A program made the translations under genes and the position numbers. From Algoriphagus sp. TR-M9 (GTDB lineage Bacteria > Bacteroidota > Bacteroidia > Cytophagales > Cyclobacteriaceae), in the NCBI RefSeq assembly GCF_027594545.1, contig NZ_CP115160.1, positions 1,993,001 through 2,057,000 of the forward strand: a DNA stretch of 64,000 nt, given 5' to 3'. Below, piece by piece: positions 14,827 to 35,639 of the stretch. Below the pieces are notes generated by a model. That model ran no database searches. It was not told where the DNA came from and worked only from the letters and a program-made list of their open reading frames with translations. The number at the start of each line of letters is the position of its first letter. Position 1 is the first letter of the stretch.

Positions 14827-15525
14827 TTACCCCTTCCAATCCTTTATCTCAACTTTCAGTTCTTCTGCTCCCCCCACCACGGCTAATCCGTAATTAGGAA
14901 TAGCACTCAGGTATTTTACTGCGTATATCTGTTTAGGAGGTTTTGAATTATGTTCCCGAATCTCTAGCCAAGGATTTTGATTTACAGAACGAACCAAAAC
15001 CTGATCAAGTGGAAAACTTAATCCTTTACCCAGATACTTTATCAGGGCTTCTTTTATACACCAGTGTTTAAAGAAAACTTCGCTTAGCTTCTTTTCACTG
15101 GAATTTTGGATGATTGAGATTTCTTCAGGCGCGAAAAAATGGGAAGAAATCAATTCTGCTTCCACCTCGGGGTCCAAAAATTCACAGTCCACCCCCAGTT
15201 TTCCCTCACGGGAAAAACCAATGGCTACATGATCACGGGAATGCGAGGAATTGAAATAGAGTTTTTCCTTTGAGAAGGCAATAAATGGTTTTCCCAATGG
15301 GCTATAACCAAAACGAATGGACTTTGGGCTTAGGTCTAGGTATGATGCAGCTAGTTTTCGCAGCATAGTCCGCCTTTTAATAAATAAGTCCCGGTGTTTT
15401 TGGTACACCAATTTTTCCAGCCTTTTGAGTTCATCATTTGAAAGATATTCAGGATTGGTATCCGGAATAGTCGAAAGATTACCTACCCATAGCTCTACTC
15501 TCATACTTATCTGATCTGATCCCAT
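14827..15525 (-). CDS. 4'-phosphopantetheinyl transferase, Sfp type
   Basis: A 232-residue enzyme that transfers phosphopantetheine from CoA to the active serine of carrier domains. The magnesium-binding GVDCEF motif (about residues 114-119) and the WCIKEALIKYLGKG motif (about 150-163) are intact. It overlaps the synthetase gene upstream by 19 bp and is the last gene of the minus arm, so it most likely primes the carrier domains of both synthetases and the free carrier protein in this locus. Confidence 0.95.
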   Translation of the reverse strand: MGSDQISMRVELWVGNLSTIPDTNPEYLSNDELKRLEKLVYQKHRDLFIKRRTMLRKLAASYLDLSPKSIRFGYSPLGKPFIAFSKEKLYFNSSHSRDHVAIGFSREGKLGVDCEFLDPEVEAELISSHFFAPEEISIIQNSSEKKLSEVFFKHWCIKEALIKYLGKGLSFPLDQVLVRSVNQNPWLEIREHNSKPPKQIYAVKYLSAIPNYGLAVVGGAEELKVEIKDWKG

Positions 15526-18500
15526 TTTTCCAGGTTTCTGGCAATGGCAGCATTCATTTGCCCTGTATAAGGCTCACGCATCAATTTCAAGTGTGGTCCC
15601 AAAATCTCCTCATGATCTACGATCTTTACCAAAGGCTCCCAGCCGAAAGCATGCTTAAACTCCCTGGGCGTGGTAATAAGCAAGGTTTCGCAGTCAATTT
15701 TCTCAGGTTTATAAGAGAGCAAATACTTTTTCAACAAACCTGTATCCCGGATCAATACAGGCTGATTTTTATCTTTTTTTACCTTTTTGATCAATTTACT
15801 GATCAGTACTGAAGGTTTATTCCAATAGTCTAAATACTTGAATAATTTTCTATAGCCTCCCTTACCAAACACCCGTGATTTATCGAAAAACAGAGGTGGG
15901 TCTATCATCACCAGATTGACCTTCTCCCCTTCTTGCATTAGTCTTTTAGCTAACTCAAATGCCACCACATTCCCAATAGAATAAGATAAAATCCGATAAG
16001 GGCCATTCTTCTGAATCAATTTGATTTCTTCCAGACAAAGCGCAGCGATCTCTTCTATGCTTCTCGGAACAGAGTCCTTCACCAATTCCGGACTAACCGA
16101 TAAAACCCCATAAACAGGGTATTCAGCAGGTAAATGTCTGGTTAACTGACTATATACGGTTTCATAGTAAAACTCGCTGTGTATGCAGAAAACCGGTAAT
16201 TTATCTCCAGTAGTCTTAACAGGTATGATTCTTTTTATAGGTTTGGAAAGGGATTCAACTAACTCTTTTTTAATTACTATCTTCTTTGAAATATCCTGAA
16301 TTGAATCCGTTAGTTGAATTGGCTTTTGGAATTCATAACTATCATTTAGTTCCTTTTCTACCAACTTCCATTCATATTCAGCCCCTCCATTTTTTTGGAT
16401 ACTATCTTTAACTCCGATCAACTTCTGCCCTAAATACTTCTCCCAAACTTTTAATATCTCCAACTCCAGCAAATTTTCTGGCCGCGCATACTCCTCATGA
16501 TGAAGGGATTTCACTAGAGATTCCACCGTAGAATAGCGAAGAAATTGAGCAGGAGTCACCTTAATACCTATGTTTCTACACCTGGAAATAATGCGAATAC
16601 TTTGCAAAGAATTACCTCCCAGGTCATTAAAGTCTCTGTTGACCGGCACTTCCTCTACTCCCATCACATCTGCCCAGATACCAGCAACTTGGCGTTCCAG
16701 GTAGGTAGATGGCCCTCTAAAGGCTGATTCAGCAGCTTTTGGTTGGGATTGAGCAAGCTCTTGAATGGAGGCTAAATCCACTTTCCCGTTAGGCAAACGC
16801 GGCCAATCATCCAATGCTACAAAGATTTCCGGCACCATATAGTTGGGGAGCTTTTGACGCAAAAACCTGCTCAGCTCACTTTCTTCTAAACCCGCGGATG
16901 TTGAGTAAGCTAAAATTAGCTGAGGTTCCTTAGCTGTGCTAACCAGAGCCACTGCTGTCTGGACAGTAGGGAATTGCAGCGCCAATTCCTGTATTTCACC
17001 CAACTCGATTCGATGACCCCGAATTTTTACCTGATTATCGGTTCTTCCCAGATATTCTATCAAGCCGTCTTTCTGAATGCGAACGAGGTCTCCGGTTCTA
17101 TAAATCCTATCCCAAACCTCTGAATAAGGGTTTTTTAGGAATTTTTCATCGGTTTCACTTTTCGATAAATAGCCTTTTGTCAACCCTGCTCCGGCAATGC
17201 AAAGTTCACCCGAAATCCCTACTGGACTTAACTTTTGCTGCTCATCCAAAACGTAGCCCAAAGCATTGGAAGTTGCCAGACCTATGGGCACTTTATGAAA
17301 TGACTCACCGGCTTTTAGCTCTTGAACAGTACACCAAACCGTTCCTTCGGTAGGCCCATATTCATTAAAAAGCCTTGTTTTCGGCTGTTTTTCAAAATGT
17401 GATGAAATCAATTCATTGGGGAACTCCTCTCCTGCCAATATCACTATTTTAAGAGAATCCCATGAATTTTCACTCCCTTGCATCAATGCCTGATACAGGG
17501 AAGGAAGCATTAGGGTATGACTTACTTTTTCTCTACTAATTAGTGTGGAAAGTGCGGTAGAATCCAGAGTTTCATTGGCCTGAGAAATAACCAATTTTCC
17601 TCCAGTACAGAGTGACCAAAAAATCCCCGCAACCGAACTATCAAATGAAAAGGAGGACAACAATAAAAAGGCTTCTGGAGACTCTTGATAATAAGCTTTT
17701 CTAGCAGCAACGGATGAATATAAATTTTGATGATTTACGTAAACTCCTTTGGGTTTATTTGTACTTCCCGAAGTGAAAATAAGATAAGCATTTCTATTTT
17801 CAGAAATATTCTTATCAATTTGATTTACAGTATTTTGATTGTAATCAAGTGAATCAATTTCTAGAGAATGGATGGACTCTTTTATAGAGGTTTTGGAAGC
17901 TAATAATCCTCGGTGAGTAAGCACATATTTGGCTCCGGATTCTGCCAAATAGTGAATAATTCTATCGTCAGGATATTCTGGATCCAGCGGCAAATATGCT
18001 CCTCCAAATTTCATAATTGCCAATAGGGAAACAAGGAAATCAACGGACCTTTCCATATAGATTCCTATCGGTAACTCAGGGTCTAGATTAAGCTTTTCAA
18101 GTTCCTTGGAAATGATAGCACTTCTATGTCCCAATTCTCCATAAGTCAAGCGCTCCGATCCGCAAACCACAGCGACTTGATCTCTTTTATTTTGCAGGTT
18201 ATCAAGAATCGCTGTTAAAACCGTTCCTTCATTTTCGGGATGAAAATCCGGGCTTAAACCTGAAGTTAAAAAGCTTCTTTCCTCTTCTGAGATCAGAGAA
18301 TAAGCGTGGATAGGCAAATCTGGATGATCACAAATCTCCTTGAGGAGGGTTGCAAAATGCCTATTCATACGATCCGCAAAGACGGTGGAGAACAAATCTT
18401 GGCTAAATTCTATCCCAATTTGATAAGCCCCATCTTTCAACCCAAAATGATGTAAAGTCAAGTCAAACTTAGAAACATCCAGATCCAGGACTTCAAAATC

Positions 18501-19694
18501 AACAGGGATACCCAACTCTTGGAAAGGATTTTCTCCGCTTGAATGCCCTACGAACATGGCTTGAAAGATTGGATTATAGCTCTGATCTTTTGATGCTTTA
18601 CTTGCTAGTAACAGTTGTTCATAGCTGGGTTTTTGTGAAGAAATGGCTTTCAGTACATCGGTTTTTACCTCGGCAATGAGTTCATCAAATTTCTTTGAAT
18701 CATTCAGTTCAGCAGCAATCACCTGAGTATCTACAAAATAGCCAACCATGGACTTAAACTCTTCCCTATCTCTATTGAGAACAGGAATGCCCACATTCAC
18801 ATTCTTACTTTTCCCATATCGGCCAAGCAAAACCTGAAAAGCAGCCAGAAATAAATTGAAATCTGTGGTTTGAAAGGTTTTAAGTAGCCCTCCAATTTTT
18901 GGAGTAAGACTTTTAGGCAGTGAAAACCGAAGCAATTGACCTCGGTAACTCGGCCTAGCGGGTCTAGCATAATCCAAAGGAAGTTCCAAAAAAGAGTCCA
19001 TAAAATCTTGGGATGGATTCACTAGAGCAATATCTTTTGGCTGTTCCTTTAGCCAATGGGAATAATCCGAGTACTGTAACTCAGTATTTCTTAACTCAAT
19101 TTTTTGACTTTCCTCTTTACCATTTAATTCCTTATAAAAAGCAGCAAAATCAGACCTCAAAATCCCTATGGACCAGGCATCTATGATGATGTGATGAAAA
19201 GTAATTCCTATGGAATACTCCCCATTTTCCAATGGAAAAATTCCTATCCGAATTAAAGGATCTGACTCTAGTCTAAAGGCTTTGCTGGCTAATTCCTTTT
19301 GTTTTTGTCTAGCTTCCTCTACACTAAACTCTTGATCGTGTACCTGAAGGCTGAAACTATTCTCATCCCGAAAGACCATTACGGCTTCTTCCTCAAGAAT
19401 AATGTAATTGCTGGCTAAAACACGGTGTTTTTCAACAAGGCGGTCTAGGGCTTTGGTAAATGTCTCCAGATGAAAGGCCCCTTCCTGAAACTTCCAGACT
19501 TCTGAGTAGTTATAAACAGGGCTTTCCGGGTTCTTTTGATAAACAAACCAAAGACGTTGCTGAGCAATCGATAAAGGATAATAGGAAGCCTGGGGAGCTC
19601 TAGGAATCTGCTCCTTATTACTTTCATCAGCCGCTTGTTCAGGTTCACTTAGATTAAGCCACTGATCCAGAAGATCATCCGAATTTTCTTCCAT
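15507..19694 (-). CDS. nonribosomal peptide synthetase, C-A-PCP-PCP*-TE (termination module)
   Basis: A 1395-residue synthetase. Domains in order: condensation (about 38-460; HHIIIDAW at 167-174, A in place of the usual G), adenylation (about 480-985; A3 loop TSGSTNKPKG near 640), an active carrier (serine S1029 in GGNS), a second carrier-like region (about 1070-1130) whose serine position is E1106 (GGAE), so it cannot be primed, and a thioesterase (about 1135-1395; S-Y-S1239-I-G with S in place of the first G of GxSxG). The specificity pocket reads about D-S-A-L-I-A-E-V-W and I cannot match it to an amino acid. It should take the chain from the other synthetase and release it. Confidence 0.95.
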   Translation of the reverse strand: MEENSDDLLDQWLNLSEPEQAADESNKEQIPRAPQASYYPLSIAQQRLWFVYQKNPESPVYNYSEVWKFQEGAFHLETFTKALDRLVEKHRVLASNYIILEEEAVMVFRDENSFSLQVHDQEFSVEEARQKQKELASKAFRLESDPLIRIGIFPLENGEYSIGITFHHIIIDAWSIGILRSDFAAFYKELNGKEESQKIELRNTELQYSDYSHWLKEQPKDIALVNPSQDFMDSFLELPLDYARPARPSYRGQLLRFSLPKSLTPKIGGLLKTFQTTDFNLFLAAFQVLLGRYGKSKNVNVGIPVLNRDREEFKSMVGYFVDTQVIAAELNDSKKFDELIAEVKTDVLKAISSQKPSYEQLLLASKASKDQSYNPIFQAMFVGHSSGENPFQELGIPVDFEVLDLDVSKFDLTLHHFGLKDGAYQIGIEFSQDLFSTVFADRMNRHFATLLKEICDHPDLPIHAYSLISEEERSFLTSGLSPDFHPENEGTVLTAILDNLQNKRDQVAVVCGSERLTYGELGHRSAIISKELEKLNLDPELPIGIYMERSVDFLVSLLAIMKFGGAYLPLDPEYPDDRIIHYLAESGAKYVLTHRGLLASKTSIKESIHSLEIDSLDYNQNTVNQIDKNISENRNAYLIFTSGSTNKPKGVYVNHQNLYSSVAARKAYYQESPEAFLLLSSFSFDSSVAGIFWSLCTGGKLVISQANETLDSTALSTLISREKVSHTLMLPSLYQALMQGSENSWDSLKIVILAGEEFPNELISSHFEKQPKTRLFNEYGPTEGTVWCTVQELKAGESFHKVPIGLATSNALGYVLDEQQKLSPVGISGELCIAGAGLTKGYLSKSETDEKFLKNPYSEVWDRIYRTGDLVRIQKDGLIEYLGRTDNQVKIRGHRIELGEIQELALQFPTVQTAVALVSTAKEPQLILAYSTSAGLEESELSRFLRQKLPNYMVPEIFVALDDWPRLPNGKVDLASIQELAQSQPKAAESAFRGPSTYLERQVAGIWADVMGVEEVPVNRDFNDLGGNSLQSIRIISRCRNIGIKVTPAQFLRYSTVESLVKSLHHEEYARPENLLELEILKVWEKYLGQKLIGVKDSIQKNGGAEYEWKLVEKELNDSYEFQKPIQLTDSIQDISKKIVIKKELVESLSKPIKRIIPVKTTGDKLPVFCIHSEFYYETVYSQLTRHLPAEYPVYGVLSVSPELVKDSVPRSIEEIAALCLEEIKLIQKNGPYRILSYSIGNVVAFELAKRLMQEGEKVNLVMIDPPLFFDKSRVFGKGGYRKLFKYLDYWNKPSVLISKLIKKVKKDKNQPVLIRDTGLLKKYLLSYKPEKIDCETLLITTPREFKHAFGWEPLVKIVDHEEILGPHLKLMREPYTGQMNAAIARNLEKWDQIR

Positions 19695-21062: not shown

Positions 21063-22139
21063 ATGTTCAAGAGTAGAGAAACTATAATTATAGACAGCGA
21101 TGCTATAATTCAGATCATCAAGACTATAGGCTTACATCAAGTGATGGAAGATTTGATTTTCGAGCTAAGGGAATCATTGGTCAATTTTTCAGAAAAAGAA
21201 ATCGAAGTTCCGGCTAGATCGGGCTTTAATTATAAAAAACCATTTCTTGGATTAGTAGAATGGATGCCTGTGATGAAAAAAGGGCATGAAGTAATCATCA
21301 AAGTAGTGGGATATCACCCGGATAATCCTAAACTTTTTAAAATCCCCACCATACTATCCACCATATCTTCCTATGATTCGCACACCGGGCATTTAAATTT
21401 CATTGTGGATGGAGTATTGCTTACAGCGCTTCGTACTGGCGCATCCTCTGCTTTGGCTTCTCAATTAATGGCTCATCCGGATTCTACCTCGCTAGGTATT
21501 ATAGGTTGTGGAGCTCAGTCGGTCACCCAGATCCATGCCTTGTCTCGACTATTTGACCTGAAGGAAATCAGGATTTTTGATACTGATCCATCAGCCATGA
21601 AGAGCCTGCAAGCTAGAATTGCTCCCCTCGATCTACCTATCAATCTGGAGTTTTCTGATATAGACGAAATCATTGCTACTTCGGACATAGTCTGCACAGC
21701 TACCTCTATCGCGCCTGAGAAGGGTCCCCTATTCGAGCATTACGAATGCAAACCACATCTGCACATCAATGCCGTAGGCGCAGATTTTCCGGGTAAAATA
21801 GAGCTTCCGCTTTCGTTTTTGAGGAAAGCAAAGGTTTGTCCGGATTTCTTGGAGCAAGCAGTAGTTGAAGGGGAATGCCAGCAACTTGCTCCGGAGGAAA
21901 TAGGACCTTCCTGGGTGAAATTGATGCAATCAAAAGAATCACATACCGCCTACCAGAAATGTTTGAGTGTTTTTGATTCTACGGGCTGGGCTTTGGAGGA
22001 TTTGGTAGTAGCCAACCTTTTTGCGGACTATGCGGAAAAATTGGGTTTGGGAGAAAAAGTGAACCTGGAATCTTACTCGGCCGATGAAAAGAACCCATAT
22101 GGTATGCTTTATTCTTCTGCTAAATCGCTGCAAAAGTAA
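21063..22139 (+). CDS. ornithine cyclodeaminase / mu-crystallin family dehydrogenase
   Basis: A 358-residue NAD(P)-dependent enzyme of the ornithine cyclodeaminase / mu-crystallin family. The Rossmann loop GIIGCGAQSVTQ (about residues 144-155) is intact, and the N-terminal half forms the substrate and dimer domain with TGASSALAS near residues 126-134. Relatives include ornithine cyclodeaminase (giving proline), alanine and ketimine dehydrogenases, and SbnB-type enzymes that make diaminopropionate for siderophores. As first gene of the plus arm it probably makes an unusual amino-acid precursor. Which reaction it catalyses is not predictable here; no SbnA-like partner is present. Confidence 0.86.
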   Translation: MFKSRETIIIDSDAIIQIIKTIGLHQVMEDLIFELRESLVNFSEKEIEVPARSGFNYKKPFLGLVEWMPVMKKGHEVIIKVVGYHPDNPKLFKIPTILSTISSYDSHTGHLNFIVDGVLLTALRTGASSALASQLMAHPDSTSLGIIGCGAQSVTQIHALSRLFDLKEIRIFDTDPSAMKSLQARIAPLDLPINLEFSDIDEIIATSDIVCTATSIAPEKGPLFEHYECKPHLHINAVGADFPGKIELPLSFLRKAKVCPDFLEQAVVEGECQQLAPEEIGPSWVKLMQSKESHTAYQKCLSVFDSTGWALEDLVVANLFADYAEKLGLGEKVNLESYSADEKNPYGMLYSSAKSLQK

Positions 22140-22255: not shown

Positions 22256-24496
22256 ATGAAAAAAACGCTACTATTCACGATTTTCCTGCTTTTAGGAGTT
22301 AGTTATTCTAGTCTAGCACAAGCTCTCAAAGGAAGGATTTTAGACCAAACCAGTTCCCCGGTGATTGGGGCTTATGTCATTCATAACGGATCAGAGCACC
22401 ATGCCCATACCAATGGCTCTGGTTATTTTGTTTTACAGGGGGTATCCATAGGTGATTCTATTCAAGTAAGTCACATGGGCTATGAAACTCAAAATTTGAA
22501 AGTAGAAGCACTTGATCGTGAGTTCACTATTAGAATGAGAGAAACGGCGATTGAGCTGGGAGAAGTGGTATTTAGTCAGGATTTAAATCCTCTGAACACC
22601 TTATCCAGGATAGACCTGAGGACCAATCCGGTGAATACTTCGCAAGATATACTTAGGAAGGTACCTGGACTATTTATAGGCCAGCATGCCGGTGGTGGTA
22701 AAGCAGAGCAAATTTTTCTAAGGGGATTTGATATCGATCATGGTACGGATATTAATATTACTGTAGATGGGATGCCAGTCAATATGGTATCTCATGCCCA
22801 CGGCCAGGGTTATTCCGATTTGCACTTTTTAATACCTGAGACGGTAGAGCGAGTGGATTTTGACAAAGGCCCTTACAATGCTGACAAAGGTAATTTTGCT
22901 ACTGCAGGATATGTGAATTTTCAGACCAAAAGAGGCTTAGACAAAAGCTCTGTATCGGTACAGGGTGGTAGTTTTAACACCGTGAGGACAGTAGGACTTT
23001 TTAACTTGATCAATGAGAAAAAGAACAATGCTTACATAGCAGCTGAGTATTTGGCCAGCGATGGGCCATTTGAAGCCAGTCAAAATTTCAACCGAATCAA
23101 CCTTATGGGTAGGTATGGATTGAGTTTGGATGATGGTAGTGATATCAGTTTGATCGCTTCTTACTTTACCAGTAAGTGGGATGCCTCTGGTCAGATCCCT
23201 ATTCGGGCTGTGGAAAGTGGTCAAATTTCAAGATTTGGAGCGCTGGATGATACTGAAGGTGGGTACACCAGCAGAACAAATCTAGGACTAACACATGCCA
23301 AACAGATTAACGATCGACTGTTTATCAAAAACAATGTTTATTACAGCAATTACGACTTCGAACTATTTTCCAATTTCACCTTCTTTTTAGAAGACTCCGT
23401 GAATGGGGATCAAATTCGCCAGCGTGAAAATAGAGCGATCTTTGGGGCAGAATCCCAGCTGACTTATAGCAAGCTGTTTTCCGGCGGGGAGTATGACCTG
23501 CAGTTTGGTGTAGGCTTGAGAAATGACGATATCCGGGACAATGAGTTAGCAGGTACCAAAAATCGGGATAGTGTACGGTTCGTTACTCAGCGGGGAGATA
23601 TTACAGAGTCCAATTACTACACCTATTTGAATTTGAATGTCTCATTTGATAAGTTACGAATTAACCCTGGAGTGCGTGTAGATTATTTCAATTACCTGTA
23701 TCAAGACGAACTGACTCCTGCATACGACCCCAAATCACTCAATGCCGCTGTGGTCAGTCCCAAGCTTAACTTCATCTACACAGCTTCGGACAACGTTCAG
23801 CTGTTTTTGAAGTCGGGAATAGGTTTTCACTCCAATGACACCAGGCTAGTTCTAGAACGACCAAATAACGAATCTATACTACCCAGAGCCTTCGGTGCCG
23901 ATTTGGGAGGAAGTTTCAAATTGATGCCCAGGTTGATCCTGAATTCAGCGCTATGGGTGCTTCGCCTGGAGCAGGAATTCGTGTATGTGGGTGATGCTGG
24001 CATAGTAGAGCCGAGTGGCAGAACTTCAAGAAGAGGAGTTGACTTGGGCTTGAGATGGCAAGCCAATAACTGGATTTATTTAGATGGGGATTTCACTTAT
24101 TCTTATGCCAGAAGTATAGATGATGCTGAGGGAGAAAATTTCATTCCTTTAGCTCCGAGGATCACTACCACAGGTGGACTGAGCTTTGAAAAGGATAGGC
24201 TTTCAGGAGCGCTTAGAGCGAGGTATTTACAGGATAGACCAGCGAATGAGGACAACAGTGTAATCGCAGAAGGTTACACCATTTTGGACCTGAATGCTAA
24301 CTATAGGGTTAATGCATTCACCTTTGGGTTTTTCATAGAAAACCTCCTAAATTCAGAATGGAGGGAAGCACAGTTTGATACTGAATCGCGCATTCGATTG
24401 GCAAATGGACAGTTAGAACCCGAGCCTGTTAGCGAGATTCACTTTACACCAGGTACTCCATTCAATTTCAGAGGGTTTGTAAAGTTTACATTTTAA
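22256..24496 (+). CDS. TonB-dependent outer-membrane receptor
   Basis: A 746-residue outer-membrane transporter. A signal peptide (about 1-21) is followed by a carboxypeptidase-regulatory-like domain (about 22-105), the plug (about 118-235; DILRKVPGLFI and a DINITVDGMPVN segment) and a 22-strand barrel ending in an aromatic residue (F746). The regulatory domain and plug carry His clusters (SEHHAHT near residue 42, MVSHAHGQGYSDLHF near 178-192) that could contact metal. It lies within a peptide synthetase operon, so uptake of the product or its metal complex is likely. TonB energy would come from a transducer elsewhere. Confidence 0.93.
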   Translation: MKKTLLFTIFLLLGVSYSSLAQALKGRILDQTSSPVIGAYVIHNGSEHHAHTNGSGYFVLQGVSIGDSIQVSHMGYETQNLKVEALDREFTIRMRETAIELGEVVFSQDLNPLNTLSRIDLRTNPVNTSQDILRKVPGLFIGQHAGGGKAEQIFLRGFDIDHGTDINITVDGMPVNMVSHAHGQGYSDLHFLIPETVERVDFDKGPYNADKGNFATAGYVNFQTKRGLDKSSVSVQGGSFNTVRTVGLFNLINEKKNNAYIAAEYLASDGPFEASQNFNRINLMGRYGLSLDDGSDISLIASYFTSKWDASGQIPIRAVESGQISRFGALDDTEGGYTSRTNLGLTHAKQINDRLFIKNNVYYSNYDFELFSNFTFFLEDSVNGDQIRQRENRAIFGAESQLTYSKLFSGGEYDLQFGVGLRNDDIRDNELAGTKNRDSVRFVTQRGDITESNYYTYLNLNVSFDKLRINPGVRVDYFNYLYQDELTPAYDPKSLNAAVVSPKLNFIYTASDNVQLFLKSGIGFHSNDTRLVLERPNNESILPRAFGADLGGSFKLMPRLILNSALWVLRLEQEFVYVGDAGIVEPSGRTSRRGVDLGLRWQANNWIYLDGDFTYSYARSIDDAEGENFIPLAPRITTTGGLSFEKDRLSGALRARYLQDRPANEDNSVIAEGYTILDLNANYRVNAFTFGFFIENLLNSEWREAQFDTESRIRLANGQLEPEPVSEIHFTPGTPFNFRGFVKFTF

Positions 24497-24499
24497 TAT

Positions 24500-25645
24500 A
24501 TGAATTTCGGCTGGAGCGAAGCACAATTAGAATTAAAGAAGAAAGCCAAGGATTTTGCTTTAAAGCACCTGAATAGTGAGGTCTCCCAAAAGGAACAGAC
24601 CAATAGTTTTCCTTTGGAAGAATGGCAAAAGTGTGCTGAATTCGGCGTCTTGGGATGGCCTTTTCCAAAGGAATACGGCGGGGCTGGGTATGAAATGTCC
24701 ACCAGCATCTTGATGCTAGAGGGTTTAGGCTTTGGAAGTGAAGATAATGGTCTCCCCTTTTCACTTAACTCTCAGCTGTGGAGTACTCAGATGGCTATCA
24801 ATGCCTTTGGTACGGAGGAGCAAAAACAAAAGTACCTCAAGCCTTTGATAGCTGGTAAAATAGGTGCATTTGGTATTACAGAAGAAGATTCGGGCTCCGA
24901 TACTTACAGTCTTAAAATGTGCGCTGAAAGAGTGGATGGAGGATATGTTTTAAATGGAGAAAAACATTACATCACCCTGGCCCCCATTTGTGACATTGCC
25001 GTAGTTTTTGCCACCACAAATCCTAAACTGGGTAAATGGGGAATTACCGCTTTCATTGTGGATCGATCCTGTGATGGTTTTACGGTCAGTGAGGTGCGAG
25101 AAAAAGTAGGAATGCGCACCACACCCATGGGGAATTTATATTTTAAGGACTGCTTCGTCTCTGAATCTAACCGACTTGGAAAAGAAGGGGCTGGGCTTAG
25201 CCTCTTTTCTTCCGCTATGGAGTCTGAGCGAGGGTATATCTTTGCCAGCCAGGTGGGAAGAATGGAAAAGCAATTAGAAAAAGCAGTCGAATATGCCAAC
25301 TCCCGAAAATCTTTCGGAAAGACTATCGGTACTTTTCAATCTATTTCCAATCGAATTGCCAACATGCGTCTAAGGCTGGAAACCTGCAAAATGCACCTAT
25401 ACAAAGTGGCCTACCTCGATGATCATGACCTACCTTTAATGAAGGAAGCCGCAATGGCAAAGCTCTATATCAGCGAGGCTTTTGTGGAGTCCAGTATGGA
25501 TTTTATCCGGATTTTTGGGGCCAAAGGTGTAGTGACCGAATTTGAAATCGAACGTGATTTAAGAGATGGATTAGGCGGGTTGATTTATTCAGGAACTTCG
25601 GATATCCAGCGAAATATCATCGCTAAACTAGAAGGATTACTGTGA
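24500..25645 (+). CDS. acyl-CoA dehydrogenase-like flavoprotein of the peptide locus
   Basis: A 381-residue acyl-CoA dehydrogenase fold: N-terminal helical, central beta (ITEEDSGSD near 126-134) and C-terminal helical domains with the FAD-binding RKSFGKTIG loop. The medium-chain-type catalytic glutamate of YEGTS is serine here (IYSGTSDIQ, near 366-374), but E243 in ESERG aligns with the alternative base used by isovaleryl-CoA dehydrogenase, so activity is plausible. It starts 3 bp after the receptor gene and overlaps the adenylation gene by 4 bp (GTGA). Comparable enzymes desaturate aminoacyl groups held on carrier proteins; that is the inferred role. Confidence 0.93.
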   Translation: MNFGWSEAQLELKKKAKDFALKHLNSEVSQKEQTNSFPLEEWQKCAEFGVLGWPFPKEYGGAGYEMSTSILMLEGLGFGSEDNGLPFSLNSQLWSTQMAINAFGTEEQKQKYLKPLIAGKIGAFGITEEDSGSDTYSLKMCAERVDGGYVLNGEKHYITLAPICDIAVVFATTNPKLGKWGITAFIVDRSCDGFTVSEVREKVGMRTTPMGNLYFKDCFVSESNRLGKEGAGLSLFSSAMESERGYIFASQVGRMEKQLEKAVEYANSRKSFGKTIGTFQSISNRIANMRLRLETCKMHLYKVAYLDDHDLPLMKEAAMAKLYISEAFVESSMDFIRIFGAKGVVTEFEIERDLRDGLGGLIYSGTSDIQRNIIAKLEGLL

Positions 25646-27177
25646 ATCAAAATACAGTCATACTACCCGATATGCTCAGAGTCGCTGCGCAGAAAAATCC
25701 TGATAAGTTAGCGTTTATCTCAAGTGACAGTAAGATCAGCTATAAGGACCTGGACCGAAAAAGCGATCAGCTAGCGCACTGGCTACAGTCAGTAGGAGTC
25801 AAAAAAGGTGATCGTGTAGGCATTTTGATTGAAAAAAATAGCACTGCCGCTTTTGCTGTTTATGGCATTCTCAAGTCAGGAGCCGTATTAGTCACCTTAG
25901 ACCCGGGGCAGCCTTCTCAAAAGCTGAACCGTATCTTATCGGATTGCAATATTGAAGTGATTTTGACCATTTCTGCCCACCAGAGATTGATTGGCGATTT
26001 GATTCATTCAGGGTTAAAAGTACTAGGAGCTTCACCAGGAATTACCTGGGAAGAACTATTTAGTATGGACTCCCCTACTCCTGCACCTATAAACATCGAA
26101 CCCCAGGACCAGGCCTATATACTCTACACGTCAGGATCTACAGGCGAACCAAAAGGAATAGTTCATACACATAGGAGTGGCTTGGCCTATGCCCGTCAAT
26201 CGGTCCGCTTGTACCAAGTTACAGCTGAGGATGTGATCGGAAATGTAGCTTCACTGCATTTTGATCAAAGTACTTTTGGGTATTTCGCGTCAGTCTACGC
26301 TGGGTGTTCTACCTATGTCTTTAGCCCTGGAGAATTGGTAATGCTGGGGAGCTTTTGTGCTGCGATAGCTAAACATGACATCAGCATACTTTATTCTGTT
26401 CCATCCCTGTTTGTTTCCATCTTAGACGGAGGTTTTGACCTAAACTTCCCATCACTCCGATGGATCAAATATGGTGGTGAAAGTTTTCCGCCTAAGAAAT
26501 TGCAAAACCTACTCCGCTCTGTTCCGAATGCAAAAGTTTCTAATGTCTATGGGCCTGCTGAGGTCAATCAATGTACTTACTACCATCTTTCTCATCCGGA
26601 TCAGGTCAACGGAGAAATCCCAATTGGTAAGGTCTGGGAAAATACCGCTTATCAAATCCTGGATGAGGATGGAAAGAATGTGATGCCTGGTGAAAAAGGC
26701 GAATTGGCGATTCACTCTCTCACCATGATGACTGGATATTGGAACAATGAAAAGCTGAACCAAGAAGCTTTTCTTACCGAAATGCGTGATTCTGGTGAAT
26801 TGGTTCAGTATTATAGAACCGGTGATATTGTTTATGAAAACAAGGAGAATTTATTGGTATTTGTGGGTCGAAAAGACAGGCAAATAAAAATAGACGGCAA
26901 ACGTGTGGAGCTTCAGGAAGTAGAGCAGGAATTACTTCAACTGGAAGAAATATTACAAGCAGCAGTTTTCGCCATAAACCTTGCCGGAAAGAAGGAACTC
27001 TGCGCAGCTGTGGTCCCAGATTTAGCTAAATTCGATAAAGCTCAAGTTCTAGGTAAATTGAAGCAAAACCTAGCCAAACATTGCATTCCCAGAAACATTT
27101 TTGAGCTGAAATCACTTCCCCAGTCAGATAATGGAAAGATTCACTACAGAGAACTGGAAAAAATATTTTCGACCTGA
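25642..27177 (+). CDS. stand-alone amino-acid adenylation protein
   Basis: A 511-residue single adenylation domain without carrier or condensation domain. Motifs are intact: A3 YTSGSTGEPKG (about 167-177), A5 VYGPAE, A7 YRTGD, A8 near RQIKIDGKRVE and the catalytic lysine in NGKIHY near the end. It begins at GTG, overlapping the previous stop. The specificity pocket reads about D-Q-F-Y-K-G-V-Q-C, including an unusual lysine, and matches no code I know. It should load the 76-residue carrier protein encoded two genes downstream. DltA-type naming is common for such proteins, but no dlt operon is present. Confidence 0.92.
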   Translation: MNQNTVILPDMLRVAAQKNPDKLAFISSDSKISYKDLDRKSDQLAHWLQSVGVKKGDRVGILIEKNSTAAFAVYGILKSGAVLVTLDPGQPSQKLNRILSDCNIEVILTISAHQRLIGDLIHSGLKVLGASPGITWEELFSMDSPTPAPINIEPQDQAYILYTSGSTGEPKGIVHTHRSGLAYARQSVRLYQVTAEDVIGNVASLHFDQSTFGYFASVYAGCSTYVFSPGELVMLGSFCAAIAKHDISILYSVPSLFVSILDGGFDLNFPSLRWIKYGGESFPPKKLQNLLRSVPNAKVSNVYGPAEVNQCTYYHLSHPDQVNGEIPIGKVWENTAYQILDEDGKNVMPGEKGELAIHSLTMMTGYWNNEKLNQEAFLTEMRDSGELVQYYRTGDIVYENKENLLVFVGRKDRQIKIDGKRVELQEVEQELLQLEEILQAAVFAINLAGKKELCAAVVPDLAKFDKAQVLGKLKQNLAKHCIPRNIFELKSLPQSDNGKIHYRELEKIFST

Positions 27178-27197: not shown

Positions 27198-27962
27198 ATG
27201 ATTACAAAAGAGCAACTTAAGCACTATTCTAGTAAAGGCTATTTAATCCTCCCGAAGATGTACCAAGGGGAAGTTTTGGCAAGCCTGATCACAGCTACAG
27301 AGCGTCTAGAAAAACTGGATGGGCCTGAGTTTTTTAGAGAGAAAAACTCCGGAAAAATCCGGACAGTCTTTGCTCCGGAAAAATTTGACCAGACCATCGC
27401 TAAGCTTATCAACCAGTTGGAACTGAGACAAATTATCTACCAGATTCTGGGAGAGGATTTTTATCTGTTCCAATCTAAGCTTAATACCAAAGCCTGCCTG
27501 GAATCCGGGGTTTGGACCTGGCATCAGGATTTTAAGTTTTGGAAAGAAGATGGAATGTTGCAGGCAAATGCTGTGACTGCTGCTGTGCTGCTTTCCGATG
27601 TGGATATCGCCAATGGACCAATATTGCTCATTCCGGGCACTCATCAGGAAGGTGAAGTCAGTTCCTATCTCAACAATCCAGAAGGAGTGCACGATGAAAA
27701 TCTCAAGTACATGATTCACCCATCCACGCTGTCCAGCATGTGTGAGAAATATGAACCCATAGTCCCACTCCTGGGTAAAGCTGGAGACTTATTGCTTTTC
27801 CATAGCAATGTGCTACATGCCTCCTATCAAAACATGGGGTATCTAGACAGAAAGCTACTGATGCTTACATTTAATCCCATCCGAAACATACAGGAAGTAG
27901 AACATCCCAGACCAGACTATATGGTCAAAAGAAATAAGGCCGTTTTATCCCCTAATTCATGA
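27198..27962 (+). CDS. phytanoyl-CoA dioxygenase (PhyH) family, EctD-like hydroxylase
   Basis: A 254-residue Fe(II)/2-oxoglutarate oxygenase. The iron ligands are H109 and D111 (HQD) and a distal His, probably H207 (VLHAS). The stretch SKLNTKACLESGVWTWHQDF, with DGM just after and GPILLIPGTH further on, resembles ectoine hydroxylase and related free or carrier-bound amino-acid hydroxylases more than phytanoyl-CoA hydroxylase. It lies between the adenylation and carrier genes and overlaps the carrier gene by 4 bp (ATGA), so it likely hydroxylates the building block activated by its neighbours. The exact substrate is inferred. Confidence 0.9.
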   Translation: MITKEQLKHYSSKGYLILPKMYQGEVLASLITATERLEKLDGPEFFREKNSGKIRTVFAPEKFDQTIAKLINQLELRQIIYQILGEDFYLFQSKLNTKACLESGVWTWHQDFKFWKEDGMLQANAVTAAVLLSDVDIANGPILLIPGTHQEGEVSSYLNNPEGVHDENLKYMIHPSTLSSMCEKYEPIVPLLGKAGDLLLFHSNVLHASYQNMGYLDRKLLMLTFNPIRNIQEVEHPRPDYMVKRNKAVLSPNS

Positions 27963-28189
27963 CTCAAGAACTTATTCAATATATCACCAAAGCCATCGAT
28001 CAGCCTATTCAGGCAGATGAAGAATTGTTGAGTACTGGCCTGATTGATAGCATAACTATCATGAAGGTGATTGCCTATCTGGAAGAAACATATCAGGTGA
28101 AAGTGCCCCCTCAAGACATGGTAATAGAGAATTTCAATACCGTCAATTCAATCTCCGATTATGTCACCCAACTGAAGGCAAAACTATAA
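27959..28189 (+). CDS. stand-alone acyl/peptidyl carrier protein
   Basis: A 76-residue four-helix carrier protein. The phosphopantetheine serine is in LIDSITI (S32). Size and the following acidic helix 2 fit stand-alone carriers that accept an amino acid from a separate adenylation enzyme. It overlaps the hydroxylase gene by 4 bp and its stop is immediately followed by the ATG of the second synthetase, whose N-terminal condensation domain is the expected acceptor partner. It is probably primed by the phosphopantetheinyl transferase at 14827-15525. Confidence 0.92.
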   Translation: MTQELIQYITKAIDQPIQADEELLSTGLIDSITIMKVIAYLEETYQVKVPPQDMVIENFNTVNSISDYVTQLKAKL

Positions 28190-31100
28190 ATGTCAGAATT
28201 TACAACCTTTGATTCCCAAAGTTTAACCCAAAGTCAACTTGCCATCTGGACCGGCCAAAAAATGGCTCCGGATTCATGCGCAAACAATCTTCCTCACATC
28301 TTTGAACTGAAAGGGAAAATTGACCCTATTCTGTTTAAAGATGCATTTCAGGGTTTGATTCAGTCCCAGGAAATTTTTAGAACCGTTTTTCTCGAAAATG
28401 AAGATGGGGAGGTTATCCAACAGATCCAGAAGACTACCTCTGATCAATTGGAATTGGTTAGGATTAATGAAGGTGAGTTGGATTCTTACCTAAAAAATCA
28501 AATCAATAAAAGCTTTGACCTTAGCCGATGTTGCTTTGATTCTTCACTCATCGCGATTGACGAAAATAGGTGGATTTGGTATTTATCCATGCACCACATT
28601 GTAGCGGATGCCAGCACGTTCAAAGTACTATTTAATGAAATGGCTGGGCGTTACTTTGCTTTACTGAATCAAATACCCCTTGCACCCTATCAAGCGGCTT
28701 CCTTTCAGGAATTCAGGGCTTATGAAAGTAAACAAGAAGCAGGTAGTTATTGGGACTTGAAAGCCCAAGAGCCTGTTAACACCCCTCAACTTTATGGAAA
28801 CAGCGCTCATAAGGGGAAAAAAAGCGCCCGCAGGGTTCAGCTTTTGCTCACTGAAACCGATAAAAAACAACTTCAGGAAAAGCTGAGCTCAGAGACTTAC
28901 CGGGCATTCAATCAGGATTTAGCTCAATACACCCTTTGGACCTCTTTATTTGCGGCCTTTATAGCCAAAACTTCTGGAGAAAGTAGAATTCGATTAGGAA
29001 GCCCCTATCCTAATCGGAACCTACAAAAGTTCAAACAAACGGCTGGGCTCCTGATCGAAGTATTGCCTCTGGACCTATTTATAGATGAAAATGAAACCTT
29101 TCAAAGCCTATTTCTAAAGGTTAAAAATGAGCTTTTTGACTTTTTCAAATATGGACAAGCCGGTGCCCAATCGCCTGAAAACTCAAGGGGAATCCATTTT
29201 GTGGTCAATTTTATCCCGCTCCATTTTGGAAACTTTGGTGACATTGAATGTAACACGCAGTGGTTATTTCCTGACCAACTGGACTCCGTGCATCATATGC
29301 GTTTGCAGATTTTTGATTTCAATGATGCTACCAATAAAAATTATTATTTGGAGATCAATGAGGAGCATTTGACTGAAAGTCAGGCAAACCTTATTCCCCT
29401 ACATTTTCAAAACCTGCTTCAAGCTTTTTTGGCAAATGATCAATCCTCCTTAGATGAGATTAACCTGATCACAAAGCAGGAAATTCAGGAAACGCTCCAT
29501 GAAAAACCTGAGTCAGAAGAGTTTCAGCCGGAAAGCCTGGTCTTGCAGCTCCGAAAAGGCTTTGAGTTAAATTCAAAAAATATAGCCATCCGCTGCGGGG
29601 ATGAAACCCTCAGCTATGCACAACTTGAGCATAAAATAAAAGCTCAATGCAATATTTTAGCCAACCAGGGCTTGGGCGAGGGTTCTATTTTGGCCATTCA
29701 CCAACCTAGATCCGTTGAGTTTTTACTTACTGTTTTGGCATCTATTCGTTTAGGTATTGTCTTCGTTCCGATTCCTGTAGATCTCCCTCCAAAGCGTATA
29801 GAGTTAATTTTAGGAGAGTTGAAACCAGATGCAGTTGTTACCAATGGGCTAGGCTTTGCTCATAGTTATTTGACTATCGGGAGTGAATCTCCGCGACCAG
29901 TAGAGGTTCAAAGTAGCGCTGAATTATCACCTCATGCTGCTGATCGATTGGCTTATATTCTTTTCACTTCCGGATCCACCGGCAAACCAAAAGGGGTGGA
30001 AGTTTCCCTTCCCGCACTTTCTAATTACATCGCGCAAGCCAAGTCGATTTATCAAGTTGAGCAAAAGATGGTGATGCCATTTTTTACTTCCATAGGCTTT
30101 GATTTGACCATTACCTCCCTCTTTTTGCCCTTAGTCTGTGGAGGAGAAATAGTGATTTTTCCAGAAAAGAAAACAGGTCCAGACTTAGCAGTTTTGGAAA
30201 TATTTAAAAATAAAGACTTGACTACAGTCAAACTGACGCCCTCTCACGCCAGGTTGATTTTGGATTACCAATTAAAAGAATCCGCGGTTTCTACCTTGAT
30301 TTTGGGAGGAGAAAATCTAGAAAGCCAACTTGCTGAAGAGCTCCAGCAGACCTTTGCGCCGGGACTTCGCATATTTAACGAATATGGTCCCACAGAGGCA
30401 ACGGTAGGCTGCATTGTCCACCAATACACCCAGAAAGAAAGTGCTTTGCACTCTGTGCCTATAGGCAAGCCTATCTTAGGCTGTGAAGCTTATCTTTTAG
30501 ACCGAAACCTCAGACCCGTTTCCCAAGGTCTTCCCGGAGAATTGTTTCTGTCGGGAAAGGTATTGGCGCGTGGATATGCTAAGCGTCCTGATTTGACTAA
30601 AAGTTATTTTCTCGAAAATCCTTTCCAAGCCGGCCAAGTCATGTATAAAACTGGTGACATGGCTAGATTAAATTCCTCTGGTAACTTTGAATATCTGGGC
30701 CGCTTGGATGAACAACTCAAAATCAACGGGGTGCGAATAGAATCCGGAGAAATAGAGAAATTACTCAATGAGGTACCAGGAATCGAGGAGGTCCATCTGG
30801 CAGTGGCGCGCAGCAATGAAGATCAATATCATCATCCAGAATATTATTGTAAAAACTGTGGCCTACCTTCAAACTATCCAGACGCCAGTTTCAACGAGAA
30901 TGGCATTTGTAGTCTTTGTGAATCATTTGAGGACTATCAGCGAAATGTCTCCTCTTATTTCAAATCCTACGATAGCCTGAAGTCAGAAATAGTAGCATTG
31001 GGCCAGGGCAGAGACGCAAAATACGATTGCCTGATGCTACTCAGTGGTGGAAAAGACAGCAGCTATGCACTGGCTAAACTGAAAGAACTGGGACTGAATA

Positions 31101-32293
31101 TTTTGGCTTTCACGCTGGATAATGGTTTTATCTCCGATCATGCTAAACAAAATATTCGGAATACTACGGAAAAACTAGGTGTGGATCATATTTATGGTAG
31201 GACTTCAGCCATGAATGCGATTTTTCGGGACAGCATAGAGCGACACCAGAATGTGTGCAACGGCTGCTTCAAGACAGTTTATACCCTAAGTACTCAAGTG
31301 GCTTTGGAAAAAAACATCCCGGTGATTGTGACCGGTTTATCTCGGGGACAATTTTTCGAAACCAGACTTACCGAAGAACTTTTCATCAAGGAAAATTTTG
31401 ATCCCAAAGACATAGATCAGATTATTTTGGAAGCGCGTAAATCCTACCACAGGACCAAAGATGCTGTCAGTCAATATTTGGATGTTTCCATGTTTGAATC
31501 TGATGAGATTTTTGACAAAGTTGCTTTCTTGGATTTTTACAGATTCAGCGATGTGAGTCTGTCTGAGCTGATAGCTTATTTGGAATCCCATATTGGGTGG
31601 AAAAGGCCGCAAGATACCGGCAGAAGTACAAATTGCATCATCAACGACCTGGGGATCTATGTGCATAAGCGGAGAAAAGGCTATCATAATTATGCTTTCC
31701 CTTACAGCTGGGATGTACGGGTAGGGCATAAAAAACGTGAGGAAACCATTCATGAACTCAATGATCACCTGAGCATAGCGGAAATTAAAAACCTGATGCA
31801 GGAAATCGGCTATGATCCTAGGGAAAACTCCCAGGAACTTCGGGCTTATTTCAAAGCCAACCAATCAGTACAAATAGATCAAATAGTCAGTCATCTCCGG
31901 TCACATTTACCTACTACGATGATCCCCTCCTATTTTCAGCAGGTAGATAGTTTTCCTTTATCTCCCAATGGAAAAGTCGATAAAAAAGCCCTTGTAAAAG
32001 AACGCGTAAAGTTGTCGAAAAGTGACACTGAAGTGGTCCAAAAACCCAAGAACAAAATTGAGCAGCTGATCCATGATACCTATAGTGCAGTGCTAAAACT
32101 GGAAGCAATAGACGTGACTGACTCCTTTATTTCCTTAGGAGGAAATTCGCTCGCGGCAATCCGAATCGTTTCATTATTAGGTAAAAAGTTAAACCTAGAC
32201 ATTAGTATTCAGACCTTTTTTGAAAAAGATAGTATCAGGGAGTTGGCAGATGAAGTCACTTTGGAAATCAAAAAACGATTAGGGAAAGCCTAA
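28190..32293 (+). CDS. nonribosomal peptide synthetase C-A-PCP with a PP-loop ATPase inserted in the A domain
   Basis: A 1367-residue synthetase. Condensation domain about 10-430 (HHIVADA at 135-141). Adenylation domain from about 455; A3 FTSGSTGKPKG near 593. Pocket residues D638, L639, T642, K681, I704, G706, E731, V739, G740 and K1262 read as the asparagine code. After motif A8 (near 845) about 335 residues are inserted (about 880-1215): a zinc ribbon (C887, C890, C907, C910), a PP-loop S952-G-G-K-D-S957 and a second CxxC (C1023, C1026), resembling N-acetyl-sugar amidotransferases and tRNA-thiolation enzymes. The A domain then resumes, followed by a carrier (S1320). The insert probably modifies the asparagine amide, to amidine or thioamide; this is inference. 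Confidence 0.94.
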   Translation: MSEFTTFDSQSLTQSQLAIWTGQKMAPDSCANNLPHIFELKGKIDPILFKDAFQGLIQSQEIFRTVFLENEDGEVIQQIQKTTSDQLELVRINEGELDSYLKNQINKSFDLSRCCFDSSLIAIDENRWIWYLSMHHIVADASTFKVLFNEMAGRYFALLNQIPLAPYQAASFQEFRAYESKQEAGSYWDLKAQEPVNTPQLYGNSAHKGKKSARRVQLLLTETDKKQLQEKLSSETYRAFNQDLAQYTLWTSLFAAFIAKTSGESRIRLGSPYPNRNLQKFKQTAGLLIEVLPLDLFIDENETFQSLFLKVKNELFDFFKYGQAGAQSPENSRGIHFVVNFIPLHFGNFGDIECNTQWLFPDQLDSVHHMRLQIFDFNDATNKNYYLEINEEHLTESQANLIPLHFQNLLQAFLANDQSSLDEINLITKQEIQETLHEKPESEEFQPESLVLQLRKGFELNSKNIAIRCGDETLSYAQLEHKIKAQCNILANQGLGEGSILAIHQPRSVEFLLTVLASIRLGIVFVPIPVDLPPKRIELILGELKPDAVVTNGLGFAHSYLTIGSESPRPVEVQSSAELSPHAADRLAYILFTSGSTGKPKGVEVSLPALSNYIAQAKSIYQVEQKMVMPFFTSIGFDLTITSLFLPLVCGGEIVIFPEKKTGPDLAVLEIFKNKDLTTVKLTPSHARLILDYQLKESAVSTLILGGENLESQLAEELQQTFAPGLRIFNEYGPTEATVGCIVHQYTQKESALHSVPIGKPILGCEAYLLDRNLRPVSQGLPGELFLSGKVLARGYAKRPDLTKSYFLENPFQAGQVMYKTGDMARLNSSGNFEYLGRLDEQLKINGVRIESGEIEKLLNEVPGIEEVHLAVARSNEDQYHHPEYYCKNCGLPSNYPDASFNENGICSLCESFEDYQRNVSSYFKSYDSLKSEIVALGQGRDAKYDCLMLLSGGKDSSYALAKLKELGLNILAFTLDNGFISDHAKQNIRNTTEKLGVDHIYGRTSAMNAIFRDSIERHQNVCNGCFKTVYTLSTQVALEKNIPVIVTGLSRGQFFETRLTEELFIKENFDPKDIDQIILEARKSYHRTKDAVSQYLDVSMFESDEIFDKVAFLDFYRFSDVSLSELIAYLESHIGWKRPQDTGRSTNCIINDLGIYVHKRRKGYHNYAFPYSWDVRVGHKKREETIHELNDHLSIAEIKNLMQEIGYDPRENSQELRAYFKANQSVQIDQIVSHLRSHLPTTMIPSYFQQVDSFPLSPNGKVDKKALVKERVKLSKSDTEVVQKPKNKIEQLIHDTYSAVLKLEAIDVTDSFISLGGNSLAAIRIVSLLGKKLNLDISIQTFFEKDSIRELADEVTLEIKKRLGKA

Positions 32294-32386
32294 AATCATC
32301 CTTTTAATCAACCATTTGCCTAGGCTTGATACTCTTATGGTGTAGGGAGCTAAAGGATTTGCTGATTTTTTTTAGCTTTGGTCCCA

Positions 32387-34041: not shown

Positions 34042-34065
34042 GTACATCAATTAGAAAGTGAACTG

Positions 34066-34212: not shown

Positions 34213-34238
34213 TTTAACCCATTAATTAACAGCGAAAT

Positions 34239-35636: not shown

Positions 35637-35639
35637 CCT

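What the first reader, a model, noticed from the sequence alone, without database searches (positions are those of the whole stretch)
28190..32293. Asparagine-type adenylation domain interrupted by a PP-loop ATP-pyrophosphatase with a zinc ribbon
The A domain runs normally to motif A8 (near residue 845), then about 335 residues (about 880-1215) intervene before the A10 lysine K1262 and the carrier S1320. The insert carries C887/C890/C907/C910, PP-loop S952-G-G-K-D-S957 and C1023-x-x-C1026, the layout of N-acetyl-sugar amidotransferases (acetamide to acetamidine) and tRNA thiolases. Interrupted A domains usually hold methyltransferases; I know of no described one with a PP-loop enzyme. The pocket (D638, L639, T642, K681, I704, G706, E731, V739, G740, K1262) reads as asparagine, so the insert could act on the side-chain amide of the bound asparagine and give an amidine or thioasparagine.
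Basis: partly seen in the sequence, partly recalled or inferred. Interest (0 to 1): 0.93.

Follow-up and report, generated by a model that had tools for sequence, protein, structure and literature searches.

The report
Nitrile-making insert in a peptide synthetase
A bacterial peptide-making enzyme carries, inside its asparagine-coded selecting domain, an ATP-using insert that appears to be of a kind already known from two antibiotic pathways and would likely turn asparagine into a nitrile, in a widespread gene cluster predicted to make a metal-scavenging peptide.

Summary
ORF 28190-32293 is a C-A-PCP module whose Asn-coded A domain (DLTKIGEVGK) is interrupted between A8 and A9 by a zinc-ribbon/PP-loop domain. 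The cysteines and PP-loop are identical in 120 of 120 aligned homologues.

The claim that none is described is wrong. Albicidin's AlbIV has a 342-aa SGGKD insert, and cystobactamid's CysH has the related AMDH domain. CysH dehydrates carrier-bound Asn to beta-cyanoalanine or isomerises it to isoAsn. So nitrile (-18 Da) or isoAsn is favoured over amidine or thioamide.

New here: (1) C1023xxC1026 plus C1149 are conserved in three homologue sets. The CxxC is absent from 27 of 27 WbuX-type rows and aligns with the CxxC of LarE and TtcA. This predicts an Fe-S cluster, which could explain why CysH is brown. (2) The gene lies in a cluster seen in several phyla: TonB receptor in 62 of 81 loci, HupE/UreJ in 58 of 81, and a His-coded second synthetase (39 of 39 scored). 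It is probably a metallophore made of a cap, modified Asn and His.

CysH and AlbIV sequences were not compared, and no product is known.

The parts
28190..32293 (+). NRPS module C-A-[PP-loop/AMDH-like insert]-Asub-PCP, 1367 aa
   Evidence: ORF and translation; Pfam and NCBIfam domains
28217..29170 (+). Condensation domain (residues 10-327 matched)
   Evidence: PF00668, 155.9 bits
29576..30793 (+). A domain core (residues 463-868), pocket D638 L639 T642 K681 I704 G706 E731 V739 G740 = Asn code
   Evidence: PF00501 and TIGR01733; code DLTKIGEVGK in 67 of 77 aligned proteins, the other 10 being conservative variants or a gap at K1262; published code list passage
30836..31834 (+). PP-loop insert (about residues 883-1215) between A8 and A9
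   Evidence: WbuX profile 886-1192; AlphaFold pLDDT 92.3; A-domain model aligns with EntF with the insert skipped
30848..30919 (+). Zinc-ribbon cysteines C887, C890, C907, C910
   Evidence: 120/120 conserved
31043..31060 (+). PP-loop S952-G-G-K-D-S957
   Evidence: 120/120 conserved
31256..31267 (+). C1023-x-x-C1026, predicted Fe-S ligands
   Evidence: 120/120, 77/77, 120/120; aligns with CxxC of LarE (E 9.6e-7) and, weakly, TtuA (E 0.49) and of TtcA; no CxxC in 27 WbuX-type rows
31634..31636 (+). C1149 (DTGRSTNC), predicted third Fe-S ligand
   Evidence: at least 119 of 120, 77/77, 120/120
31973..31975 (+). A10 lysine K1262
   Evidence: 119/120, one gap
32069..32254 (+). Carrier domain (PCP) with S1320
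   Evidence: PF00550 residues 1294-1355
15507..19694 (-). Second NRPS, C-A-PCP-TE, code DSALIAEVW (His)
   Evidence: Pfam; code; published as a His code
14827..15525 (-). 4'-phosphopantetheinyl transferase
   Evidence: PF01648
19706..21001 (-). HupE/UreJ_2 family membrane protein, conserved in the cluster
   Evidence: PF13795 E 1.9e-45; 58 of 81 loci
21063..22139 (+). Ornithine cyclodeaminase/mu-crystallin family, probable proline supply
   Evidence: PF02423; best NCBIfam match is ornithine cyclodeaminase, below its cut-off; 31 of 81 loci
22256..24496 (+). TonB-dependent receptor
   Evidence: PF07715; 62 of 81 loci
24500..25645 (+). Prolyl-carrier dehydrogenase-like protein (PigA type)
   Evidence: PDB 4irn prolyl-ACP dehydrogenase E 2.3e-113; NCBIfam PigA 386.9 bits, below its cut-off of 500; 37 of 81 loci
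25642..27177 (+). Free-standing A domain, probably loads the capping residue
   Evidence: TIGR01733 over cut-off; 56 of 81 loci
27198..27962 (+). PhyH-type dioxygenase, present in 6 of 81 loci
   Evidence: PF05721; counts
27959..28189 (+). Free-standing carrier protein (76 aa)
   Evidence: PF00550; 53 of 81 loci

Best explanation
This is an NRPS module (C-A-PCP) whose asparagine-coded adenylation domain is interrupted by a PP-loop domain that is predicted to be an AMDH/alpha-ANH-type amide dehydratase and would likely turn carrier-bound asparagine into beta-cyanoalanine for what is predicted to be a metal-scavenging peptide. Shown by sequence: the architecture, the conserved motifs, the Asn code, and the conserved neighbouring genes. 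Inferred: the A domain loads Asn on the PCP; the insert uses ATP at SGGKDS to activate the side-chain amide oxygen; loss of the leaving group gives the nitrile. Inferred: C1023, C1026 and C1149 hold an Fe-S cluster near the active site, which could polarise the amide or hold a sulfur nucleophile. Inferred: a free-standing A domain, carrier and prolyl-type dehydrogenase make a proline-derived (dehydroproline or pyrrole) cap, the C domain joins it to the modified Asn, and the His-coded second NRPS adds histidine and releases the peptide through its TE. TonB and HupE/UreJ proteins would bring the metal complex or metal back in.
For: Published precedent: CysH loaded with Asn loses 18 Da (beta-cyanoalanine), and this is not seen when the AMDH domain is removed (PMC7966384 passages). 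AlbIV carries a 342-aa SGGKD insert and the same A code DLTKIGEVGK. The CysH paper says AMDH homologues found by BLAST are all inserted into Asn A domains. Here the Asn code is kept across phyla (67 of 77 identical, the other 10 conservative variants or a gap at K1262), and in 198 of 198 scorable members of the window's clade with variants only at T642, I704 and V739. Three Asn-coded proteins of 928-937 aa that start with the A domain, as AlbIV and CysH are described to do, fall in the same clade at 47-48% identity to the window's insert (P0342, P0356, P0360; Pfam calls a carrier in only one of the three). The triad is conserved, no CxxC is seen in 27 WbuX-type rows, and the CxxC aligns with that of LarE (E 9.6e-7) and TtcA (hhalign E 7.7e-6, probability 84). 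CysH is reported dark brown. Cluster: TonB 62/81, HupE 58/81, carrier 53/81; of 57 loci with both 10-kb flanks, 54 have HupE or TonB and 40 have both. His code in 39 of 39 second NRPSs of over 900 aa.
Against: CysH and AlbIV sequences were not obtained, so membership is inferred from architecture, code, motif and size, not from direct alignment. [quoted passage not shown] CysH also makes isoAsn, and in cells without its hydroxylase it gave Asn, isoAsn and beta-cyanoalanine products, so the outcome in this clade is uncertain. The nearest NCBIfam model is WbuX (amidotransferase), and the Fe-S relatives are sulfur transferases, so amidine or thioamide is not excluded. The TtuA alignment is weak (E 0.49). 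C1149 could not be matched to a third ligand, and one of the three WbuX-type rows that have a residue there also has Cys. No product of this cluster is known. No metal-responsive operator was found. The TonB receptor matches only N-terminal and plug regions of solved receptors and does not name a metal. PigA is present in only 37 of 81 loci, and the free A-domain code differs in most loci where PigA is missing, so the cap is not constant. The nitrile itself has no obvious metal-binding role.
Confidence: 0.55

Rival explanations
1. The insert is an AMDH domain whose main outcome here is isoasparagine (alpha,beta-aminomutation, no mass change) rather than beta-cyanoalanine; the alpha-carboxamide would then be a metal ligand.
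For: CysH gives both isoAsn and beta-cyanoalanine products. Its main natural products carry methoxy-isoAsn or methoxy-Asn after hydroxylation, and deletion of the hydroxylase still left isoAsn next to Asn and beta-cyanoalanine. The window has a PhyH-type dioxygenase next to the module.
Against: Purified CysH without its hydroxylase showed dehydration. PhyH is in only 6 of 81 loci, and CysJ is reported to be SyrP-like, a different oxygenase type as far as I recall. The paper notes that no isoAsn form of albicidin has been found.
Confidence: 0.2
2. The insert is a [4Fe-4S]-dependent sulfur transferase that makes thioasparagine (+16 Da), giving a thioamide ligand for copper or nickel.
Against: The measured reaction of the published Asn-type domain is dehydration. 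Fold matches of similar Z include the nitrile synthetase ArtA (12.9), GMP synthase (13.0) and NAD synthetase (12.9), so the fold does not decide. No sulfur-carrier gene appears among the window proteins scanned, though small ORFs other than the carrier at 27959 were not scanned.
Confidence: 0.13
3. One reading: a WbuX-like amidotransferase that turns the Asn side-chain amide into an amidine (-1 Da).
Against: Score below the curated cut-off (203.2). No CxxC in 27 WbuX-type rows. No glutaminase or HisF-type partner among the 20 window proteins scanned with Pfam. Published homologues dehydrate or isomerise Asn.
Confidence: 0.07

Closest known systems
AMDH domain of CysH (cystobactamid; Gross et al. 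2021, PMC7966384, passages read)
   Same: PP-loop (SGGKD) domain in an Asn-loading stand-alone NRPS module; acts on carrier-bound Asn; BLAST homologues reported to be all in Asn A domains.
   Different: CysH is a free-standing module whose Asn is shuttled by CysB in an antibiotic pathway. Here the domain sits in a C-A-PCP elongation module in a metal-uptake type cluster. The paper reports looking for CxxCxxxC and, in the passages read, proposes no Fe-S site.
alpha-ANH-like insert of AlbIV (albicidin; PMC8949500 and PMC12283262, passages read)
   Same: 342-aa insert with SGGKD, A code DLTKIGEVGK, Asn to beta-cyanoalanine proposed.
   Different: Free-standing A-T module; sequence not compared here.
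WbuX/N-acetyl sugar amidotransferases (TIGR03573, PDB 8wex)
   Same: Zinc ribbon, PP-loop, whole-domain profile match and best fold match.
   Different: Sugar enzymes outside NRPSs; no CxxC at the aligned place in 27 rows; score below cut-off.
[4Fe-4S] PP-loop thiolases and sulfur transferases TtcA, TtuA, NcsA, MmLarE
   Same: PP-loop with CxxC at the same aligned place for LarE, TtuA (weak) and TtcA.
   Different: Act on tRNA or a cofactor, not on carrier-bound amino acids; only about 110-125 residues align by sequence.
Methyltransferase-interrupted A domains (5wmm, AMA4)
   Same: A domain carrying an inserted tailoring domain, aligned.
   Different: Different inserted enzyme and reaction.

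Membership tests
AMDH/alpha-ANH-interrupted Asn A domain (CysH, AlbIV) | Insert of about 340 aa with SGGKD in the C-terminal part of an A domain, before the carrier | tested here: met
   size of the CysH domain not seen
AMDH/alpha-ANH-interrupted Asn A domain (CysH, AlbIV) | Asn-specific pocket code | tested here: met
   DLTKIGEVGK, the code given for AlbIV; a code, not a measured specificity
AMDH/alpha-ANH-interrupted Asn A domain (CysH, AlbIV) | Sequence homology to the CysH or AlbIV insert itself | not tested
   CysH was not reached; AlbIV was not listed by name among the 120 rows and was not pursued further
AMDH/alpha-ANH-interrupted Asn A domain (CysH, AlbIV) | Dehydration or aminomutation of carrier-bound Asn | not testable with these tools
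   Needs enzyme assay
WbuX N-acetyl sugar amidotransferase (TIGR03573) | Score over the curated cut-off (203.2 bits) | tested here: not met
   132.8 bits whole protein, 137.6 bits domain alone
WbuX N-acetyl sugar amidotransferase (TIGR03573) | Zinc ribbon and PP-loop | tested here: met
WbuX N-acetyl sugar amidotransferase (TIGR03573) | HisH/HisF-type ammonia-supplying partner nearby (recalled trait) | tested here: inconclusive
   None among the 20 window proteins scanned with Pfam; a partner elsewhere in the genome was not sought
[4Fe-4S] PP-loop thiolases (TtcA, TtuA, NcsA, LarE) | CxxC after the PP-loop | tested here: met
   hmmsearch alignment to 8cnz (E 9.6e-7) and weakly 5mko (E 0.49); hhalign to six TtcA-family rows, E 7.7e-6
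[4Fe-4S] PP-loop thiolases (TtcA, TtuA, NcsA, LarE) | Third cysteine ligand | tested here: inconclusive
   C1149 conserved, but the alignment to TtcA ends before it
[4Fe-4S] PP-loop thiolases (TtcA, TtuA, NcsA, LarE) | Sulfur transfer | not testable with these tools
   Needs assay
NRPS metallophore cluster | NRPS with TonB receptor and a metal-related transporter gene conserved together | tested here: met
   TonB 62/81, HupE 58/81; 40 of 57 fully flanked loci have both, 3 have neither
NRPS metallophore cluster | A product that binds metal | not testable with these tools
   No product known

The most novel reading that the evidence does not exclude
The interrupted-A-domain asparagine dehydratase is an iron-sulfur enzyme: a PP-loop domain with a conserved CxxC...C [4Fe-4S] site that makes carrier-bound nitriles, which explains the unexplained brown colour and unknown mechanism of CysH. 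Its main natural use is not antibiotics but an undescribed family of small metallophores in several phyla (proline-derived or other cap, modified Asn, His) taken up through TonB and HupE proteins. A sister clade does the same to glutamine.
Probability: 0.4. Interest if true: 0.78.

Novelty: new member of a known kind. Interest (0 to 1): 0.56.

Why it matters
The domain's architecture is already published, but the CysH paper states its mechanism as unknown and its homologues as lying in clusters of unknown function. The conserved cysteine triad makes one mechanism question directly testable: is AMDH an Fe-S enzyme? The conserved His-coded partner and the TonB and HupE genes give the homologues seen here a concrete predicted role in metal acquisition. 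Amide-to-nitrile conversion on a carrier protein would also be a useful biocatalyst.

Tried and rejected
Rejected: 'no described PP-loop-interrupted A domain' (refuted). Rejected as leading product: amidine (see rivals). Considered and kept only as a rival: thioamide; it was my own leading idea until. A search for 'thioasparagine' found no paper; thioamide + NRPS + metallophore found three, none listed as being about this system.

Led nowhere: a shared palindromic operator in 48 HupE-side intergenic regions (7-base exact arms; hits printed for 45 of the 48, none recurring; the commonest shared 8-mers are AT-rich). The class-wide genome scan with the whole protein (1 of 395 at E<=1e-150; only 2 candidates per listed genome were scored, so it says little). 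TonB receptor against solved structures (matches only in the N-terminal and plug part). Mapping C1149 to a third cluster ligand (hhalign ends at model residue 192). In the WbuX alignment, which I had trimmed, 24 of 27 rows have a gap there and the other three have I, V and C.

Novelty searches, all in the held CC-licensed PMC library: interrupted adenylation domain/PP-loop (20 of 39 listed), NRPS + N-acetyl sugar amidotransferase (none), HupE + copper + TonB (15 of 17), thioamide + metallophore, thioasparagine (none), copper + metallophore + Bacteroidota, codes, albicidin/AlbIV/cyanoalanine (20 of 31), AMDH domain, HupE/UreJ + NRPS/metallophore (20 of 296). I saw no description of this cluster in the listings, but subscription papers are not held and most listed papers were seen as titles and abstract starts only. 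Of papers opened I read passages only: PMC9973294, PMC12283262, PMC7966384, PMC12971057 on metallophore mining (the passages do not name this cluster), PMC8949500, PMC11355689 (no mention of albicidin or AMDH). The review of interrupted A domains PMC8341866 is not held.


Full report

Conservation. One search found 1910 proteins with E <= 0.001; the 120 listed (query included) were aligned. The four ribbon cysteines, SGGKDS, C1023 and C1026 are identical in 120/120, and C1149 in at least 119/120. A second set, 76 genome-locus proteins of over 1250 aa plus the query (out of 81 genes carrying SGGKDS), keeps all of these in 77/77. A third set of 120 proteins, the listed best of 232, was seeded with a Streptomyces insert that is 38% identical to the window's. 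It keeps C1023, C1026 and C1149 in 120/120 and the ribbon cysteines and SGGKDS in 118-119 of 120, the rest being gaps.

Which known enzyme it is. A paper on A-domain codes (PMC12283262, passages read) states that DLTKIGEVGK is also compatible with beta-cyanoalanine, found only in albicidin, and that AlbIV's activating domain has a 342-aa alpha-ANH-type insertion suggesting Asn is turned into beta-cyanoalanine there. A review (PMC8949500, passages read) gives the proposed ATP-dependent scheme and places the stretch between A and T. The cystobactamid paper (PMC7966384, passages read) shows that CysH loads Asn and then loses 18 Da, that this is not seen without the AMDH domain, and that the domain is needed for isoAsn and beta-cyanoalanine products. 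It also reports that CysH is dark brown, that no CxxCxxxC motif was found, and that the mechanism is unknown; its BLAST homologues were all in Asn A domains. The window's insert fits this description in place, motif and pocket code, and in size fits AlbIV. I could not compare the CysH or AlbIV sequences themselves. Three Asn-coded proteins of 928-937 aa that begin with the A domain (P0342, P0356, P0360) lie in the same clade at 47-48% identity to the window's insert; Pfam calls a carrier in one of them.

Two clades. A tree of 399 domains of at least 300 aa (of 441 found; some proteins enter twice, as protein hit and as locus gene) splits into a DTGRSTNC-type clade (283) and a GFCS/GLCS-NC clade (116), each without outsiders after midpoint rooting (support 0.93 and 1.00). 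Of the members with enough A domain to score, the first clade has Asn codes in 198/198, while the second has Glu/Gln-like codes in 29/31 and the Asn code in 2. The code paper gives DAQDLGVVDK for both Glu and Gln; Gln is my reading because an amide is needed.

The cluster. The genome-contig scan matched 270 stretches, confirmed 248 and kept 80 loci. Together with the window these 81 loci share a TonB receptor (62), a HupE/UreJ protein (58), a free A domain (56), a free carrier (53), a short exported protein before TonB (41, not in the window), a prolyl-dehydrogenase-like protein (37) and an ornithine-cyclodeaminase-like protein (31). Of 57 loci with both 10-kb flanks, 54 have HupE or TonB and 40 have both; the three with neither are L094, L105 and L119; 46 have a second NRPS. 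The second NRPS has code DSAL[IMV]AEVW in 39 of 39 proteins of over 900 aa; the code paper lists DSALIAEVWK as a His code. The dehydrogenase's closest solved relative is a prolyl-ACP dehydrogenase (4irn). Where PigA is missing, most free A-domain codes differ, so the cap varies while modified Asn and His stay. The short exported protein is often His-rich (32 of 41 have at least 3 His in 10 residues). A paper on CutF-like proteins (PMC9973294, passages read) reports that CutF-like proteins with only His-rich motifs neighbour HupE/UreJ genes and may concern Ni or Co. I read the cluster as a metallophore pathway. A cap-X-His tripeptide could bind Cu or Ni in the manner of amino-terminal Cu/Ni sites (recalled chemistry). 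The metal is not established.

Mechanism and verdict. Best reading: AMDH-type dehydration of carrier-bound Asn to beta-cyanoalanine inside a metallophore assembly line, with isoAsn next, then thioamide, then amidine. The finding is a real and conserved feature, but its kind is published. What I add is the Fe-S prediction, the Asn versus Glu/Gln clade split and the predicted metal role; I saw none of these in the papers and listings named under Tried and rejected.

Noticed in passing
e.g. P0330, P0341, P0350; L124:13074-17124: A sister clade of the insert (116 domains) sits in mostly Glu/Gln-coded A domains (29 of 31 scorable). In Streptomyces sp. NBC_01216 the insert lies in an ORF of its own behind an adjacent NRPS ORF. 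Possible Gln-side-chain counterpart (cyano or cyclic amidine product).
   Followed up: partly
L063:11494-11955 and family F5 in 41 of 81 loci: Short exported, often His-rich protein, usually just upstream of the TonB receptor, with a Pro-Pro motif near the C-terminus in the eight printed. It resembles CutF-like metal-sensing leader proteins; no Pfam match for the one tested.
   Followed up: partly
window 6979-14744: Type I restriction-modification operon (HsdM, HsdS, HsdR) with a YhcG/DUF1016 nuclease gene inside it.
   Followed up: no
window 32378-36320: DASS-type anion symporter followed by a His_kinase/LytTR two-component pair. The symporter and kinase families are in 5 of 81 loci and the regulator family in 7; they are downstream of the synthetase in four relatives.
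   Followed up: no
window 37339-40848: 1169-aa protein with ThuA, PVC-type haem-binding and plastocyanin/azurin-like copper-binding domains near the predicted metal cluster.
   Followed up: no
L096, L104, L109, L123 (Leptolyngbya/Adonisia): In cyanobacteria HupE, OCD, PigA, free A domain and the interrupted NRPS lie in one co-directional run with no TonB gene detected in the stretch held.
   Followed up: no
L125 (Roseovarius pelagicus plasmid): A plasmid-borne relative of the cluster: HupE, carrier, acyl-CoA dehydrogenase, methyltransferase, A domain and one large NRPS.
   Followed up: no
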